IMG/VR virus record: IMGVR_UViG_3300034062_007046
Coordinates: 1 to 64,000 of that record
Length of the DNA: 64,000 bases
Source of the DNA: a virus
Reading direction: 5' to 3' (one strand)
The notes beneath the pieces are model-generated. The model searched no databases. It saw only the letters and a program-made list of their open reading frames with translations, and had not been told where the DNA came from. This document shows positions 54,220 to 62,862 of the stretch, one piece after another (the stretch's first letter is position 1; every line of letters begins with the position of its first letter). Position numbers and translations under genes: made by a program.

Positions 54220-54744
54220 ATGATATTAGGATTAGATATAAGTACATCAATAACTGGGTTCACTGTTCTTACAGAAGATGGTCATATTTTACATAATGAA
54301 ATGATTGATCTAAGAAAATTAGATTCAATGTTCAAAAAAGCCCAGACTGTAAAGGAACGCTTAATAGAGATAAAAAATTTATATAACATTAAAGACGTTT
54401 ATATTGAGCAATCCCTTAACGCATTTCGACCAGGTTTAAGTAGCGCACAAGTCATCTTGACGCTCGGTAAATTTAATGGTATAGTTAGTTGGATATGTTG
54501 CGAAATTTTTAAAAAAGAGCCTGAATACATCGGAGCGTCTTCTGCCCGTAAAAAACTTGATATTAAAGTTGAAAAAGGCGAAAATGCAAAAGAAGTGGTA
54601 CTGAAGAAAATTTTAGAGCTTGAACCCAAATTTAAAGTAGAGTATACTGCTCATGGTAATCCAAAGCCCGGTACATATGACCGTGCAGATAGTTATGTGA
54701 TTGCAAAGGCTGGCTATATTCTATGTCAGAAACAAAAAAGTTAA
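54220..54744 (+). CDS. RuvC-like Holliday-junction resolvase/endonuclease
   Basis: The 174-aa protein has an RNase H-like fold signature. ILGLDISTSITGF places D6 as the first catalytic acid. VYIEQS gives E63. TYDRADSYVIAKAGY gives D154 and D157, the C-terminal acidic pair. The length matches bacterial RuvC. Phages use such enzymes to resolve branched replication DNA before packaging, a role T4 fills with an unrelated endonuclease VII. AGG lies before the ATG. The 3' end overlaps the primase gene by 22 nt, so the two are likely co-translated. Confidence 0.85.
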   Translation: MILGLDISTSITGFTVLTEDGHILHNEMIDLRKLDSMFKKAQTVKERLIEIKNLYNIKDVYIEQSLNAFRPGLSSAQVILTLGKFNGIVSWICCEIFKKEPEYIGASSARKKLDIKVEKGENAKEVVLKKILELEPKFKVEYTAHGNPKPGTYDRADSYVIAKAGYILCQKQKS

Positions 54745-55667
54745 ATATCTTAAAAGAAATATTAGGCGATTACAATCGCGTTGGGAATGAGCATCTTTTC
54801 TTTTGTCCAAAGTGTAAACACCATAAGAAAAAACTTAGCATCAATCTATCAAAAGATAAGTTTAAATGTTGGGTATGTGATTGGAATGGCTCTACTATCC
54901 GCAGAATTGTCATTCGCTATGGCAGTTTTAGCCATAATCGCAATTGGAATGAACTTCACGGAATTGTTGAAATATCAGATTACGATAAAATTTTCGATGC
55001 ACCAGATACAACAGAAGAAAAAACAATACTTCCAGAACTTCCACCAGAGTTTCAAACGCTTTGTAATCGGGATCAATCGCTAACTTCGCTACCAGTGCGT
55101 AGATATTTGCGTGAACGTGGTATTTCGCAGCAAGATATCATGTTTTGGAAGATGGGATATGCAGTTTCTGGAGAATATGAAAATCGCGTCATCATTCCAT
55201 CCTTCAATAATGAAGGCAAAATCAATTATTACGTCGGCAGACGTTATGACGGCGGCGGCTGGTCGAAGTATAAAAACCCCGATGTAAGCAAAGATCTGGT
55301 ATTTAATGAACTTTATGTTGATTGGAGCAGCGATGTTACAATCGTAGAAGGTGTTTTTGACGCAATTAAAGCGCGTAATGCTATTCCAATCCTTGGATCT
55401 ACGATGCGTGAAAGCTCAAAGCTGTTCAGAGATATCATAAAGCACGACCCAGCGATCTATATTGCATTAGACCCAGACGCCGAAAAGAAAGCAGAACGTT
55501 TGATTCTTGATTTACTGCAATACGATGCAGAAATTTACAAAGTTCCAATACCATATGGTATGGATGTTGGAGATATGTCACACGAACAATTCTTGGAATG
55601 CAAACGGAACGCTAAACTAATTAATGGAAAAGATTATTTTCTCTTAAATAAGTTGGTAAACCTATGA
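54723..55667 (+). CDS. DnaG-type DNA primase
   Basis: The 314-aa primase has an N-terminal zinc-binding domain with C28, C31, C49 and C52 (CPKC, CWVC). The Toprim part shows E209 in TIVEGVFDAIKA and D250-P-D252 in IALDPDAEKK, the conserved Glu and DxD metal-binding residues. The central part has RRYLRERGISQQDI and GYAVSGEYENRVIIPS, typical of the RNA-polymerase domain of DnaG/phage primases. No helicase domain is fused. It makes RNA primers for lagging-strand synthesis. Arginine is mostly CGN, unlike the AGA of virion genes. Confidence 0.9.
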   Translation: MSETKKLNILKEILGDYNRVGNEHLFFCPKCKHHKKKLSINLSKDKFKCWVCDWNGSTIRRIVIRYGSFSHNRNWNELHGIVEISDYDKIFDAPDTTEEKTILPELPPEFQTLCNRDQSLTSLPVRRYLRERGISQQDIMFWKMGYAVSGEYENRVIIPSFNNEGKINYYVGRRYDGGGWSKYKNPDVSKDLVFNELYVDWSSDVTIVEGVFDAIKARNAIPILGSTMRESSKLFRDIIKHDPAIYIALDPDAEKKAERLILDLLQYDAEIYKVPIPYGMDVGDMSHEQFLECKRNAKLINGKDYFLLNKLVNL

Positions 55668-56110
55668 AAATCAAAACAAGTTTTATAAAACAGTTAATAA
55701 AAGAAGAAGTAAGAAAAGTTCTTTATGGTGATCCTATTAAACAAAAAGTTATTCACTTATTCGTAAAAGCAAGAGATGGCATGGATGATCCTGCTAATAA
55801 ACAAGATTTTATACAGGATTTAATTCAATCTCTTGAAATGATTGGAGTTACGCCAAATAAGGCTATTGATCTGTTATCTCCAGAAGAGATAGATCAAAAT
55901 TTTTATATTCGTTGCAATGAGATTCACAATGAAATTGTAAAAATAACTGGTGGTAAGAAAAGAAATATAAATGCATTTGCCCACTTTCCAAGGATAGATC
56001 ACGATCCAAATATTGATCAAGATCCAGATTTTATGCGTAAGCCAAAAAATGCTGCCGCTTATGATCAGCTGGACACAAGAAAGCACACAAAGAATTTAAT
56101 ACAGCCGTAG
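55664..56110 (+). CDS. Small hypothetical protein after the primase
   Basis: A 148-aa protein overlapping the primase stop (ATGA). The N-terminus KTSFIKQLIKEEVRKVLYG is helical and basic. The middle (IQDLIQSLEMIGVTPNKAID) is helical, and the C-terminus is Asp/Pro-rich (DHDPNIDQDPDFMRKPK). I recognise no family. The last codons hold the -35 element of the promoter at 56108. It is part of the replication unit by position. Confidence 0.62.
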   Translation: MKIKTSFIKQLIKEEVRKVLYGDPIKQKVIHLFVKARDGMDDPANKQDFIQDLIQSLEMIGVTPNKAIDLLSPEEIDQNFYIRCNEIHNEIVKITGGKKRNINAFAHFPRIDHDPNIDQDPDFMRKPKNAAAYDQLDTRKHTKNLIQP

Positions 56111-56136
56111 ACAAGAATATATACTTGTTGTATACT
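56108..56136 (+). promoter_or_regulatory. Sigma-70-type promoter upstream of the SbcD-SbcC fusion
   Basis: TAGACA (56108-56113, 5/6 to TTGACA) and TATACT (56131-56136, 5/6 to TATAAT) are 17 bp apart, the ideal spacing. The -35 begins on the upstream stop codon. Initiation near 56143 falls inside the 5' arm of the terminator stem at 56138-56147, so the promoter's own transcript could not form the full hairpin. It is the best sigma-70 promoter in the window. Confidence 0.55.
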
Positions 56137-56137
56137 G

Positions 56138-56168
56138 GTCCCGTTAGTGTCCCTAACGGGACTTTTTT
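56138..56168 (+). terminator. Rho-independent terminator overlapping the promoter start region
   Basis: GTCCCGTTAG (56138-56147) pairs perfectly with CTAACGGGAC (56153-56162) around TGTCC, followed by six T (56163-56168). It would stop transcripts coming from the fibre and primase genes. GAGG (56171-56174) and the ATG of the next gene follow directly. Confidence 0.88.
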
Positions 56169-56179
56169 ATGAGGCATAA

Positions 56180-59100
56180 ATGAAAATTGCTCACATAGCA
56201 GATACGCACATCAAAAATCTTAAATATCACGATGAATATCGTGAAGTTTTCAGTAAAATGTACGACATTCTACGCTCCGAAGGAGTAGATTATATCGTTC
56301 ATTGTGGCGATATTGCCCACACAAAGACGCAAATTTCACCAGAATTTGTTGAAATGGCTGGTGATTTCTTCAAAAATCTTGCCTCTATTGCCCCAACCTA
56401 TATTATTCTCGGTAACCATGATGGCAACCTACGAAACGATAGCCGTCAAGATGCAATTACACCCATTGTAAAAGCTCTAAATTTACAAAATCTTTACCTT
56501 TTAAAAGATGCTGGCGAGATTTCTGTAAATGATCGGCTTTCTTTTAACGTTATGAGCGTATTTGACGAGAAAAATTGGGTCAAACCAAGCGATCCAAACA
56601 AGATTAACGTTGCTCTTTTCCACGGATCTGTTGCTGGTGTTCAAACAGACATTGGTTATGTCATGGAACACGGAGATTATTCTGTAGATATCTTTGCTGG
56701 ACACGATTTTGCGATGCTTGGCGACATTCACAAAACCAATCAAGTGTTGGATTTGGAAGGAAGAGTAAGATATCCTGGTTCTACCGTGCAGCAAAACTTC
56801 GGCGAAACAGACGATAAGGGTTTTTTGATCTGGAATATTGAAACCAAGGACAAGTTTAGCTGCAAGCACTACGCAATTTCAAATCCACGCCCCTTTTTTA
56901 CTATTACTCTTGATGACAGTGGACAAATTCCAGATGTTTCTGTGAAAAATGGCGCACGTATCCGTATTGTTGCTGATAAAAGCGTGTCGTTAGATAAGAT
57001 CAAGAAGGCTACAGAAGTCGTTAAGAGCAAATACAGCCCCGAAAGCGTTACATTCGTTAACAAAGCTACAGCAAGCGCCAGCGACCATGAATTAGTATCA
57101 AATGTTGTGACGCATAGCGAGAACTTACGTGATCTTTCTGTCCAAGAGAAGCTGATTCGTAATTATCTAAAGGATTTCAAAGCCGAAGATGTTGTTTTGG
57201 ACAAAGTTGTTGCTCTAAACAAGAAGTTTTCTTCATATCTTGAAGAGAACGAAGAAGTTTTGCGTAATGTTAATTGGAAGCTAAAGACTCTTGAATGGGA
57301 TAATCTGTTCAATTATGGCGAAGGCAACAAGATTAACTTTGAAAATCTGGAGGGGATTGTCGGTATCTTTGGAAAAAACTATAGCGGCAAAAGCTCAGTG
57401 ATTGATTCACTGCTATACACGGTTTATAATACAACATCAAAGAACAATCGTAAGAATATTAACGTTATTAATCAAAATCGTGATAAAGGCGCTGGTAAAG
57501 TAGAGGTTGAAATTGACGACGAGCTTTATACGATCAAAAGAACATCAGAAAAATATACAAAAAAGCTTAAAGGCGTAGCAACCACAGAGGCAAAGACTGA
57601 CGTAGAGTTTACCACAAGCGGTGAATCACTAAATGGTCTTGCTCGTAACGACACGGACAAGAATATTCGTCGTTTTTTTGGAACAATTGATGACTTTTTC
57701 TTGACTTCTATGGCAAGTCAATTTGGTTATTTATCATTTATTGGTGAAGGTTCTACAAAACGTAAAGAAATCCTGGCAAAGTTTCTTGATCTTGAGAATT
57801 TTGAGAAGAAATACAAGCTTGCAAAAGAAGAATCATCAGAAGTTAAGAGCCTCTTGAAGAAACTTGAAGGCAATGATTATGATAGAGATATTGCAACAGC
57901 TGAATTAGAGGTTGTTGCAGCAGATAATCTTCTAAAGCAAAAGTCCGATGAAGCCGAAAGCATCAAACTTTCTATTGATAGCTTGAATGAAAAGCTTTGT
58001 ACGCTAAATAAATCGTTAAATAGCATCCCCACTGAAATTATTGACTATAATGCAGAGTCTTTAAGGGCTGTCCAAATCGAAATGGATATTGGACACCACC
58101 TTGAAGCAAATCAGCAGATGCAAATAGAAAACGATAGTGCTAAAAACGCTATTAAAAAAGCAGATGAGCTGCTTTCAGCGATTAATTCAACTGATATTAC
58201 CAGGGATCAAGAAGAATTGGAGAGATTGAACGCAAAGATTCTTCCATTAGAGAAAGAAATTTCATCTATTTCAGCTCAATTAAGTGGCGCAAAGCATAAA
58301 TTAGAACTTTTAGATAGTGTTCCATGCGGAGATTCATTCCCAAGCTGCAAATTCATTAAGGATGCGTTCGGATCTAAGAAGTTATATCCAGAACTAAAGA
58401 AAAAATCAGATGATAAAAGTGAAGAACTAACAGAATTAAGCAAGAAATATGATGAACTTGACGAACAAGTCGCTGACTTGTTTAACAAAAAGACTAAAAT
58501 TACCCAAAAAAGATTAGAGATTGAGAAAAAATTAACCTCAAACGAGCTAAAAATTGAAAAAAATAATGTTGCTATTGAAAAAAAGACAAAAGAGCTTGAA
58601 GATCTTAAAAGAAAACTCGAAAACTATGCTAATAACAGAGAAGCTATTGAAAACTGCCAATTATTATTCAACAATCGTGAAATTTGTCGCTTTCAACTTG
58701 GTTCTTCAACAAAAGATCTCAAGCGATGTGAAGCAGAAATCATCGAAGCTCATAGAAAAAATGGTTCAGCAACAGAAAGAGTGGAGATCTTAAAGAAGCA
58801 AAAGGCTGATCTTGAAAATTTGCGTAAGGAATACGCCGCATACGATCTTTTTCAAGCTTGTATGCATCCAAGCGGCATTTCTTATGAGATTATCAAGCAA
58901 AAGCTACCAGAGATCAATGCAGAAATTGCTAAAATTCTAACAAATATTGTAGAATTTGGCGTTTATCTTGAGAATGATGATGATAAATTGGATATTTTTA
59001 TCAAACATCCTAAATACGATGCACGCCCATTAGAAATGGGCAGCGGTGCAGAAAAAACAATCGCATCAACAGCAATAAGATTAGCACTTTTGAATGTAAC

Positions 59101-59311
59101 AACGCTTCCAAAAGGTGATATCTTCATCTTAGATGAACCTGGGACTGCGTTAGACGAAGAAAATATGGATGGCTTTGTACGTATCTTAGAACTAATTAAG
59201 ACATATTTCAAAACTGTCATACTTATTTCACATTTAGACAGTTTAAAAGACTGTGTTGATATGCAAATTTCAATTGAAAAGATAAATGGATACGCGCATA
59301 TTGACCAATGA
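56180..59311 (+). CDS. Fused SbcD-SbcC (Mre11-Rad50, gp47-gp46-type) recombination nuclease
   Basis: The single 1043-aa chain combines a nuclease and an ATPase that are normally separate. Residues 1-about 330 are an Mre11/SbcD phosphoesterase: D8-T-H10, D44 and H47 in HCGDIAH, and N79-H80-D81 in LGNHDG. From about 365 comes a Rad50/SbcC ATPase: Walker A GKNYSGKS (398-405), long coiled coils (about 540-900), a hook with C716 and C723 (C-x6-C), and Walker B with D985 and E986 in FILDEPGTALDEEN, followed by LISHLD. Such complexes resect DNA ends for recombination-dependent replication. GAGG lies 6 nt before the ATG. The gene has its own promoter and terminator. Many arginines are CGT. Confidence 0.92.
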   Translation: MKIAHIADTHIKNLKYHDEYREVFSKMYDILRSEGVDYIVHCGDIAHTKTQISPEFVEMAGDFFKNLASIAPTYIILGNHDGNLRNDSRQDAITPIVKALNLQNLYLLKDAGEISVNDRLSFNVMSVFDEKNWVKPSDPNKINVALFHGSVAGVQTDIGYVMEHGDYSVDIFAGHDFAMLGDIHKTNQVLDLEGRVRYPGSTVQQNFGETDDKGFLIWNIETKDKFSCKHYAISNPRPFFTITLDDSGQIPDVSVKNGARIRIVADKSVSLDKIKKATEVVKSKYSPESVTFVNKATASASDHELVSNVVTHSENLRDLSVQEKLIRNYLKDFKAEDVVLDKVVALNKKFSSYLEENEEVLRNVNWKLKTLEWDNLFNYGEGNKINFENLEGIVGIFGKNYSGKSSVIDSLLYTVYNTTSKNNRKNINVINQNRDKGAGKVEVEIDDELYTIKRTSEKYTKKLKGVATTEAKTDVEFTTSGESLNGLARNDTDKNIRRFFGTIDDFFLTSMASQFGYLSFIGEGSTKRKEILAKFLDLENFEKKYKLAKEESSEVKSLLKKLEGNDYDRDIATAELEVVAADNLLKQKSDEAESIKLSIDSLNEKLCTLNKSLNSIPTEIIDYNAESLRAVQIEMDIGHHLEANQQMQIENDSAKNAIKKADELLSAINSTDITRDQEELERLNAKILPLEKEISSISAQLSGAKHKLELLDSVPCGDSFPSCKFIKDAFGSKKLYPELKKKSDDKSEELTELSKKYDELDEQVADLFNKKTKITQKRLEIEKKLTSNELKIEKNNVAIEKKTKELEDLKRKLENYANNREAIENCQLLFNNREICRFQLGSSTKDLKRCEAEIIEAHRKNGSATERVEILKKQKADLENLRKEYAAYDLFQACMHPSGISYEIIKQKLPEINAEIAKILTNIVEFGVYLENDDDKLDIFIKHPKYDARPLEMGSGAEKTIASTAIRLALLNVTTLPKGDIFILDEPGTALDEENMDGFVRILELIKTYFKTVILISHLDSLKDCVDMQISIEKINGYAHIDQ

Positions 59312-61284: not shown

Positions 61285-62862
61285 ATGTCTTACAAATTAT
61301 CTAAAGAAGAACTTAAAAGTGAAATTCTTAAATGCGGAAGAGATCCAGCATATTTTTTAGATAATTATGCAAAAATTGTTCATCAAGAAAGAGGCGTAAT
61401 ACCGTTTAAAACGTTTGCTTTTCAAAAGCAGCTCTTGAATGACTTTCATGATCATAGATATAATATAATTTTAAAAAGTCGCCAGATGGGTATTTCGACT
61501 ATCGTATCTGGCTACTGCTCTTGGATGATGCTTTTTCACAAAGAGAAGAACGTCCTCGTCATGGCAACAAAACAAAAAACTGCCATTGAAATAGTCGATA
61601 AAGTTAAAGATATAATCGAGTCAGTCCCAGACTTTCTAAAATTAGCCACTGTCACAGTAAATAATAAAACTACATTTGAACTAAGCAATGGTTCAAAAAT
61701 TCAAGGTACGCCAACCAGCAAAGATGCTGGTCGTGGTCAAGCCTTAAGCCTTTTAATTGTTGACGAAGCTGCATTCGTTGACGATATGGATGACCTCTGG
61801 ACAGGTCTATTACCAACTATTTCAACTGGTGGGCGCTGTATCGCTCTATCAACTCCTAATGGTGTCGGTAATTGGTTTCATAAAACGTATGTAGACTCGG
61901 AAGCTGGTGGAAACAATTTTAAACCTACAAAACTCTCTTGGACGCTACATCCAGAGTATGATCAAGCTTGGTTTGATAATATGACCAAGAACATGAGCAA
62001 AAGACAAATTGCTCAAGAGTTTGAATGTAATTTTAATCAATCTGGTGAAACTGTCATTAATGCGGATGATATTAACCGCATGAAAAAAAATTCAAGGGAA
62101 CCTTCTTATAAAACTTATATTGATCGAAATTTACATATCTGGAAACCTTTTGAATCTGGTGGCAGTTATCTTTTAAGCGCCGACGTTGCTCGCGGAGATG
62201 GAAAAGACTATTCAGTTTTCCATATCATTGATGTAAAAAATATGGAACAAGTAGCGGAATATCAAGGAAAATTAGATCCTGATAATTTTGCTAAACTTAT
62301 TTATGATACTGGGTTAGAATATGGTGGTTGCATGGTTGTTGTAGAAAACAACAACATCGGATACTCTGTGATCACAAAGCTTGTAGATATGCGCTATCCA
62401 AATGTTTATTACAGCACAAAATCATCTCACGAATTTATGGATACCACTTCTGCACAGTATAGCAGTAATAGTGTTCCTGGGTTTACTACAACCATGAAAA
62501 CACGTCCACTAATTGTAGCTAAACTTGATGAATTTATCCGTAACAAAAACGTAAATATTAACTCGCAAAGAACTCTGAATGAATTAGACACGTTCATATG
62601 GAATAACGGTCGTCCAGAAGCACAAAAGGGTTATAACGATGATTTAATTATGTCTCTCGCTATAGCTTGTTGGGTGAGAGACACTGCTATAATAAACAAC
62701 GAAAGAAATTTGGAGTATTCAAAAGCGTTTCTTGGGGCTTTAACAAACTCAAGAAATTATCTTAATACCACCATACCTGGTATGCAGGGGTATGAATATG
62801 AACAAAAAATTAAACAACAGCAAAATACTTATAAACAATTTGCTTGGTTGATAAAAGGTTAA
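61285..62862 (+). CDS. 17: Large terminase subunit (gp17-like)
   Basis: The 525-aa packaging motor has an ATPase and a nuclease. The P-loop region reads K64-SRQMGIS-T72, with no Lys in the usual GKT position; a Lys at the loop start is known in many terminases. Walker B has D160 and E161 (LLIVDEAAF), and the coupling motif is ALSTPNG. The RNase H-like nuclease has D300 (SADVARGDGKDYS), E354 (VVVENNN) and D452/D453 (YNDDLIMSLAIA). AGGG lies upstream; ATG 61285 starts the protein. The portal follows after 3 nt, without the sheath and tube genes that separate them in T4. Confidence 0.95.
   Translation: MSYKLSKEELKSEILKCGRDPAYFLDNYAKIVHQERGVIPFKTFAFQKQLLNDFHDHRYNIILKSRQMGISTIVSGYCSWMMLFHKEKNVLVMATKQKTAIEIVDKVKDIIESVPDFLKLATVTVNNKTTFELSNGSKIQGTPTSKDAGRGQALSLLIVDEAAFVDDMDDLWTGLLPTISTGGRCIALSTPNGVGNWFHKTYVDSEAGGNNFKPTKLSWTLHPEYDQAWFDNMTKNMSKRQIAQEFECNFNQSGETVINADDINRMKKNSREPSYKTYIDRNLHIWKPFESGGSYLLSADVARGDGKDYSVFHIIDVKNMEQVAEYQGKLDPDNFAKLIYDTGLEYGGCMVVVENNNIGYSVITKLVDMRYPNVYYSTKSSHEFMDTTSAQYSSNSVPGFTTTMKTRPLIVAKLDEFIRNKNVNINSQRTLNELDTFIWNNGRPEAQKGYNDDLIMSLAIACWVRDTAIINNERNLEYSKAFLGALTNSRNYLNTTIPGMQGYEYEQKIKQQQNTYKQFAWLIKG

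What the first reader, a model, noticed from the sequence alone, without database searches (positions are those of the whole stretch)
56180..59311. SbcD and SbcC (Mre11-Rad50) fused in one polypeptide
Seen: nuclease motifs D8-T-H10, HCGDIAH and GNHDG, and ATPase motifs GKNYSGKS and FILDEPG lie in one 1043-aa frame with no stop between. Known: in T4 (gp47, gp46) and in bacteria these are separate genes whose products assemble into a 2:2 complex. Inference: fusion fixes a 1:1 ratio and may remove the need for the separate nuclease-ATPase docking step.
Basis: partly seen in the sequence, partly recalled or inferred. Interest (0 to 1): 0.72.

Follow-up and report, generated by a model that had tools for sequence, protein, structure and literature searches.

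The report
Fused SbcD–SbcC gene in aquatic phage
A phage DNA-break-processing nuclease and its partner ATPase, usually made as two proteins, are joined in one real and functional-looking gene; such joined genes were described in 2011 and are common in water-dwelling phages and giant viruses, so this is a good new example of a known thing.

Summary
Window 56180-59311 (+) is one intact 1043-aa frame carrying a complete Mre11/SbcD part followed by a complete Rad50/SbcC part. It is not a frameshift or assembly error. Full-length single-frame relatives occur in about 80 IMG/VR contigs (397 related stretches found), in the cultured Microcystis phage Mel-JY01 and in jumbo phages, and the junction is under strong purifying selection. 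By contrast, the Listeria phage LMTA-57 'fusion' is a 1-nt artefact. The novelty claim fails: Yoshida, Claverie and Ogata (2011) described Mre11/Rad50 fusions in Mimivirus R555 and twelve other proteins, including one phage, and inferred that R555-like genes abound in aquatic viruses. The window gene fits that family, including its Asp-for-His change in nuclease motif V. AlphaFold gives nuclease, cap, helix-loop-helix, a linker of about 7 residues, then the ATPase. The normal Rad50-binding element is kept, so the fusion probably makes docking intramolecular rather than removing it. The gene sits in a conserved RuvC-primase-SbcDC-terminase neighbourhood, which fits recombination-dependent replication. 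The one under-described detail is the zinc hook: cysteines spaced CX6C or CX7C in 75 of 84 proteins instead of CXXC. Verdict: new member of a known kind, low interest.

The parts
56180..59311 (+). Fused sbcDC (mre11-rad50) gene, 1043 aa, including stop codon
56180..56875 (+). Mre11/SbcD metallophosphoesterase nuclease domain, residues 1-232 (D8, H10, D44, N79, H80, H148, D182, H184)
   Evidence: Pfam PF00149; residue conservation; model
56894..57064 (+). Mre11-type capping domain, residues 239-295
   Evidence: beta/alpha elements in the AF2 model; Foldseek matches to SbcD nuclease-plus-cap structures such as 7dog
57065..57133 (+). Flexible stretch between cap and helix-loop-helix, residues 296-318 (pLDDT below 50 at 296-312)
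57134..57250 (+). Helix-loop-helix (inferred Rad50-binding element), residues 319-333 and 337-357
   Evidence: equated with the Mre11 HLH of the T. maritima complex as described in PMC3175470
57251..57271 (+). Fusion linker, residues 358-364, before the first Rad50 strand
   Evidence: junction under purifying selection
57272..57793 (+). Rad50/SbcC ATPase lobe I, residues 365-538, with Walker A at 57371-57394
   Evidence: Pfam AAA_23; G403 K404 invariant in 84 sequences
57794..58318 (+). Coiled-coil arm 1, residues 539-713
58319..58348 (+). Zinc-hook apex, residues 714-723, C716-X6-C723 instead of CXXC
58349..58864 (+). Coiled-coil arm 2, residues 724-895
58865..59308 (+). Rad50/SbcC ATPase lobe II, residues 896-1043: signature SGAEK, Walker B ILDEP, H-loop SH1018
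54220..54744 (+). RuvC-like Holliday junction resolvase (conserved neighbour)
   Evidence: phrog_827/159; found in 59 clade-A loci
54723..55667 (+). DNA primase (conserved neighbour)
   Evidence: phrog_47, 1.6e-39; found in 86 loci with the fused gene
56137..56169 (+). Terminator-like hairpin plus T tract just upstream of the fused gene
61285..62862 (+). Terminase large subunit (conserved neighbour)
   Evidence: phrog_2; found in 70 loci

Best explanation
The gene encodes a single-chain Mre11-Rad50 (SbcD-SbcC) DNA-end-processing enzyme of the R555-like fusion type in a contractile-tailed aquatic phage. Two chains would pair through their nuclease domains, their ATP-bound ATPase heads and the zinc hook, giving the usual two-nuclease, two-ATPase assembly from one polypeptide species. 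[quoted passage not shown] ATP-controlled movements gate the nuclease, which processes DNA ends or hairpins to produce recombinogenic 3' ends for recombination-dependent replication, together with the neighbouring RuvC resolvase and primase, as T4 gp46/gp47 do. Shown here: the intact frame, all catalytic motifs, family-wide conservation, predicted domain order with a short linker, and the neighbourhood. Inferred: dimeric assembly, docking, enzymatic activity and the replication role.
For: Single frame. Both families hit over most of their span. 84 full-length fused proteins with invariant or nearly invariant D8, H10, D44, N79, H80, H148, H184 and Walker A/B residues. Junction dN/dS 0.008. AF2 model, mean pLDDT 81.5, with nuclease, cap, two-helix element and a ~7-residue linker before the ATPase and a coiled coil of about 175 residues per arm. 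Foldseek matches to solved Mre11-Rad50 (7zr1, 7yzp, 3qku, 5dny, 7dog) and to giant-virus and jumbo-phage proteins of similar length. Literature precedent with the same Asp-for-His206 change (PMC3175470). RuvC-primase-SbcDC-terminase neighbourhood conserved.
Against: No dimer could be modelled and no coordinates were available to measure the HLH-coiled-coil contact; pTM is only 0.48, so the domain arrangement is uncertain. Activity with Asp182 in place of the metal-binding His is unproven, though Asp is a plausible metal ligand and is the family norm. The CX6C hook is not known to bind zinc. No RecA/UvsX-like gene was sought in the whole record.
Confidence: 0.9

Rival explanations
1. The fusion is an artefact: an assembly error or frameshift joined two neighbouring genes.
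For: Such artefacts exist. The Listeria phage LMTA-57 single 1009-aa frame is 1 nt shorter than near-identical phages, which are annotated with two separate genes there.
Against: About 80 contigs from many samples plus cultured phages have the same fusion in frame. The junction is conserved in protein and changed mainly at synonymous sites.
Confidence: 0.01
2. The chain is made fused but also, or instead, as separate subunits, by internal initiation or processing.
For: T4-like phages with split genes are known; scattered start-like codons occur near the junction in the family.
Against: No position near the junction has a start-like codon with a ribosome-site-like sequence in more than 5 of the roughly 80 sequences.
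Confidence: 0.06
3. The nuclease half is degenerate, and the protein acts mainly as a DNA-tethering SMC-like ATPase.
For: Motif V has Asp182 where the canonical motif has the first His (GDIH rather than GHIH).
Against: The Asp is present in 83 of 84 relatives alongside all other metal ligands. GDIH also occurs in other fused phage proteins on a separate branch, and GDLH in split Proteus PM135. Loss of function would not keep the motifs.
Confidence: 0.05

Closest known systems
Mimivirus R555-type Mre11/Rad50 fusion proteins (Yoshida, Claverie, Ogata 2011, PMC3175470)
   Same: Same domain order (Mre11 first), single chain, Asp replacing PfMre11 His206, HLH kept, short linker, abundance in aquatic viral metagenomes; BFVD matches to Tupanvirus, Catovirus and Harvfovirus proteins
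   Different: Shorter (1043 against 1351 aa); in a tailed phage, not a giant virus; hook spacing CX6C in this clade. R555 itself was not compared letter by letter.
Microcystis phage Mel-JY01 WWT39521.1 and the related IMG/VR group (L092-L111)
   Same: Fused, about 30% identical over the whole length, same primase neighbour
   Different: Hook is CXXC; Walker A begins APNASGKS
Jumbo-phage fusions: Tenacibaculum PTm1/PTm5, Sphingomonas PAU gp288, LR756501
   Same: Single CDS or frame with both domains
   Different: Longer ATPase part, CXXC hook, strongly diverged
Second fused group: Rhizobium RHph_Y65, Vibrio Va2, E. coli IME392, Thermus phiLo
   Same: Single CDS with both domains
   Different: Separate branch in both trees, so possibly an independent fusion
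T4 gp47/gp46
   Same: Same enzyme families, same inferred role in recombination-dependent replication
   Different: Two genes; CXXC hook; GHFH in motif V

Membership tests
Mre11/SbcD nuclease | Calcineurin-like phosphoesterase fold with metal ligands of motifs I-V | tested here: met
   Pfam PF00149; D8, H10, D44, N79, H80, H148, H184 nearly invariant; position 182 is Asp, not His
Mre11/SbcD nuclease | Capping domain and C-terminal helix-loop-helix | tested here: met
   Both present as secondary-structure elements in the AF2 model
[quoted passage not shown]
   No coordinates or dimer prediction available
Mre11/SbcD nuclease | Mn-dependent exo/endonuclease activity | not testable with these tools
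   Needs purified protein
Rad50/SbcC ATPase | Bipartite ABC ATPase with Walker A, signature, Walker B, H-loop | tested here: met
Rad50/SbcC ATPase | Antiparallel coiled coil between the lobes | tested here: met
   Helices 539-713 and 724-895
Rad50/SbcC ATPase | CXXC zinc hook at the coiled-coil apex | tested here: not met
   Two cysteines kept but spaced CX6C (C716, C723); CX6C 70, CX7C 5, CXXC 9 of 84 relatives. All other Rad50 features are met and CXXC occurs inside the same clade, so this lowers only the claim of a canonical hook.
R555-type Mre11/Rad50 fusion | Both domains in one chain, Mre11 first, short linker, Asp at the His206 position | tested here: met
R555-type Mre11/Rad50 fusion | Phylogenetic grouping with R555 itself | not tested
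   R555 sequence was not among the hits; only predicted structures of its giant-virus relatives were matched

The most novel reading that the evidence does not exclude
This phage clade uses a variant zinc hook in which the two cysteines of each Rad50 apex are spaced CX6C or CX7C (PCGxxFPxCKFI) instead of CXXC, still joining two chains through zinc but with a different loop geometry. It would be a described departure from the rule that CXXC is conserved in all forms of life.
Probability: 0.35. Interest if true: 0.4.

Novelty: new member of a known kind. Interest (0 to 1): 0.2.

Why it matters
It confirms with full-length genes what was inferred in 2011 from short reads: fused Mre11-Rad50 is a mainstream form of this enzyme in aquatic tailed phages, not a rarity. 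A single-chain version would be convenient for structural and single-molecule work, because the two activities cannot separate. The variant hook offers a test of how strict zinc-hook geometry must be.

Tried and rejected
Assembly or frameshift artefact: rejected, with LMTA-57 as an example of what an artefact looks like. Internal translation start at the junction: no consistent signal. Degenerate nuclease because of GDIH: rejected as family-wide. Host from the GTDB scan: uninformative, three metagenome-assembled hits, one broken by a 300-N gap in a WOR-3 scaffold and likely a mis-binned phage piece. Group I intron in the interrupted LR756508 gene: no Rfam match. The T4 gp46 coiled-coil paper (PMC4583041) was not held. 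Number of fusion origins: one or two, not resolved, long branches.

Full report
Observation. The frame 56180-59311 (+) is intact, starts with ATG after a GAGG ribosome-binding-like sequence and encodes 1043 aa. Pfam finds a metallophosphoesterase at 1-176 and an AAA_23 ATPase at 374-606. PHROGs finds the SbcD-like family over 1-354 and the SbcC-like family over 209-1038. Solved-structure matches are to Rad50 and Mre11. No second gp46- or gp47-like gene lies in the 82,845-base virus record, which may be a fragment.

Real, not artefact. A scan of IMG/VR with the protein gave 397 related stretches; the best 80 (L006-L085) cover essentially the whole length, and all are single open frames of about 1027-1086 residues, two of them shortened by contig ends. 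L006 is identical to the query and probably the same genome, so it is not independent. Identity of the others runs from 89% down to about 50%. Against L007 (89% identical) the junction (residues 330-400) has dN 0.006 and dS 0.72. As a contrast, Listeria phage LMTA-57 carries a fused frame of 3030 nt where near-identical Listeria phages have 3031 nt annotated as two genes, so that one is a single-base event or error.

Anatomy. The AlphaFold2 model made on a 57-sequence alignment has mean pLDDT 81.5 and pTM 0.48. From its secondary structure: nuclease 1-232, cap 239-295, a flexible stretch 296-318, two helices 319-333 and 337-357 that I read as the Mre11 helix-loop-helix, a linker 358-364, ATPase lobe I 365-538, coiled coil 539-713 and 724-895 with the hook between, and lobe II to the end. 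Yoshida et al. argued that the geometry of the T. maritima complex asks for a 9-12 residue linker between Mre11 and Rad50; the model gives about 7 unstructured residues, roughly in line. Foldseek finds solved Mre11-Rad50 heads (7zr1, 7yzp, 3qku, 5dny, 7dog) and, among viral models, proteins of similar length from Tupanvirus, Harvfovirus, Yasminevirus, Catovirus, Tenacibaculum phages and others. TM-scores over the full length are low, as expected for a flexible coiled-coil protein.

Catalytic residues. Of 84 aligned proteins, D8, H10, D44, N79, H80, H148, H184, the Walker A GK, Walker B DE and the H-loop His are invariant or nearly so. Position 182 is Asp in 83 of 84; the exception is Listeria LMTA-57. 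The same Asp-for-His206 change is reported for Mimivirus R555.

Hook. The apex has C716 and C723 (PCGDSFPSCKFI). In the 84 proteins the spacing is CX6C in 70, CX7C in 5 and CXXC in 9; within the clade the CXXC ones have a different apex sequence (HEYDPxCxxC). T4, E. coli, cyanophage and the other fused groups tested have CXXC, except L109 (CX6C) and the split Moorella phage gene (CX7C). Published work states that the CXXC hook is conserved in Rad50 homologues including viruses (PMC5093744), and I found no paper on other spacings in the open library; absence there is weak evidence.

Relatives and origins. Fused genes in a single CDS are also in Microcystis phage Mel-JY01, Rhizobium RHph_Y65 and its relatives, Tenacibaculum PTm1, Sphingomonas PAU, Vibrio Va2, E. 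coli IME392 and Thermus phiLo. Trees of the nuclease and ATPase parts both put the window gene in a 22-member all-fused group (SH-aLRT 94 and 98) and Y65/Va2/IME392/phiLo in another (89 and 100). Whether there were one or two fusions is open; long branches limit this.

Neighbourhood. RuvC-like resolvase, primase, the fused gene, small genes and terminase recur together in this clade, and primase also flanks the Mel-JY01 group. With a baseplate wedge protein elsewhere in the window this is a contractile-tailed phage. A role in recombination-dependent replication, as for T4 gp46/gp47, is the natural inference, not a demonstration.

Literature. Yoshida, Claverie and Ogata (2011) described R555 and twelve further Mre11/Rad50 fusions, including Bacillus phage 0305phi8-36, and concluded that R555 homologues are abundant in aquatic viral fractions and may belong to phages. 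The finding is therefore a confirmation with better data. The residual novelty is the hook spacing, unproven functionally.

Noticed in passing
L002 3580-4640 (uncultured jumbo phage LR756508.1): The fused gene is interrupted just after nuclease motif V by about 1 kb carrying a 305-aa ORF with a TnsA-like endonuclease N-terminal match (5.8e-6), probably a homing element; no Rfam intron match.
   Followed up: partly
L111 3316-6514: The related gene is broken at the same site into two overlapping frames between motif V and the YPGS motif: a split at a new place, a frame error or a homing-element scar.
   Followed up: partly
window 56108-56169: A TATACT -10-like element directly followed by a strong hairpin and T tract lies just before the fused gene; several close relatives keep a hairpin there with different stem sequence.
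   Followed up: partly
L004 3908-6937 (Listeria phage LMTA-57): The annotated single recombination exonuclease is 1 nt shorter than the two-gene version in near-identical phages; likely sequencing error or single-lineage frameshift.
   Followed up: yes
L091 (CP070664.1, WOR-3 MAG): Relative of the fused phage gene broken by a 300-N gap in a bacterial MAG chromosome; probably a phage piece mis-scaffolded into the MAG.
   Followed up: partly
L005 3926-6058 (Moorella phage MTATph1): Split SbcC-like gene with a CX7C apex (PCNDKLKPSC) rather than CXXC.
   Followed up: no
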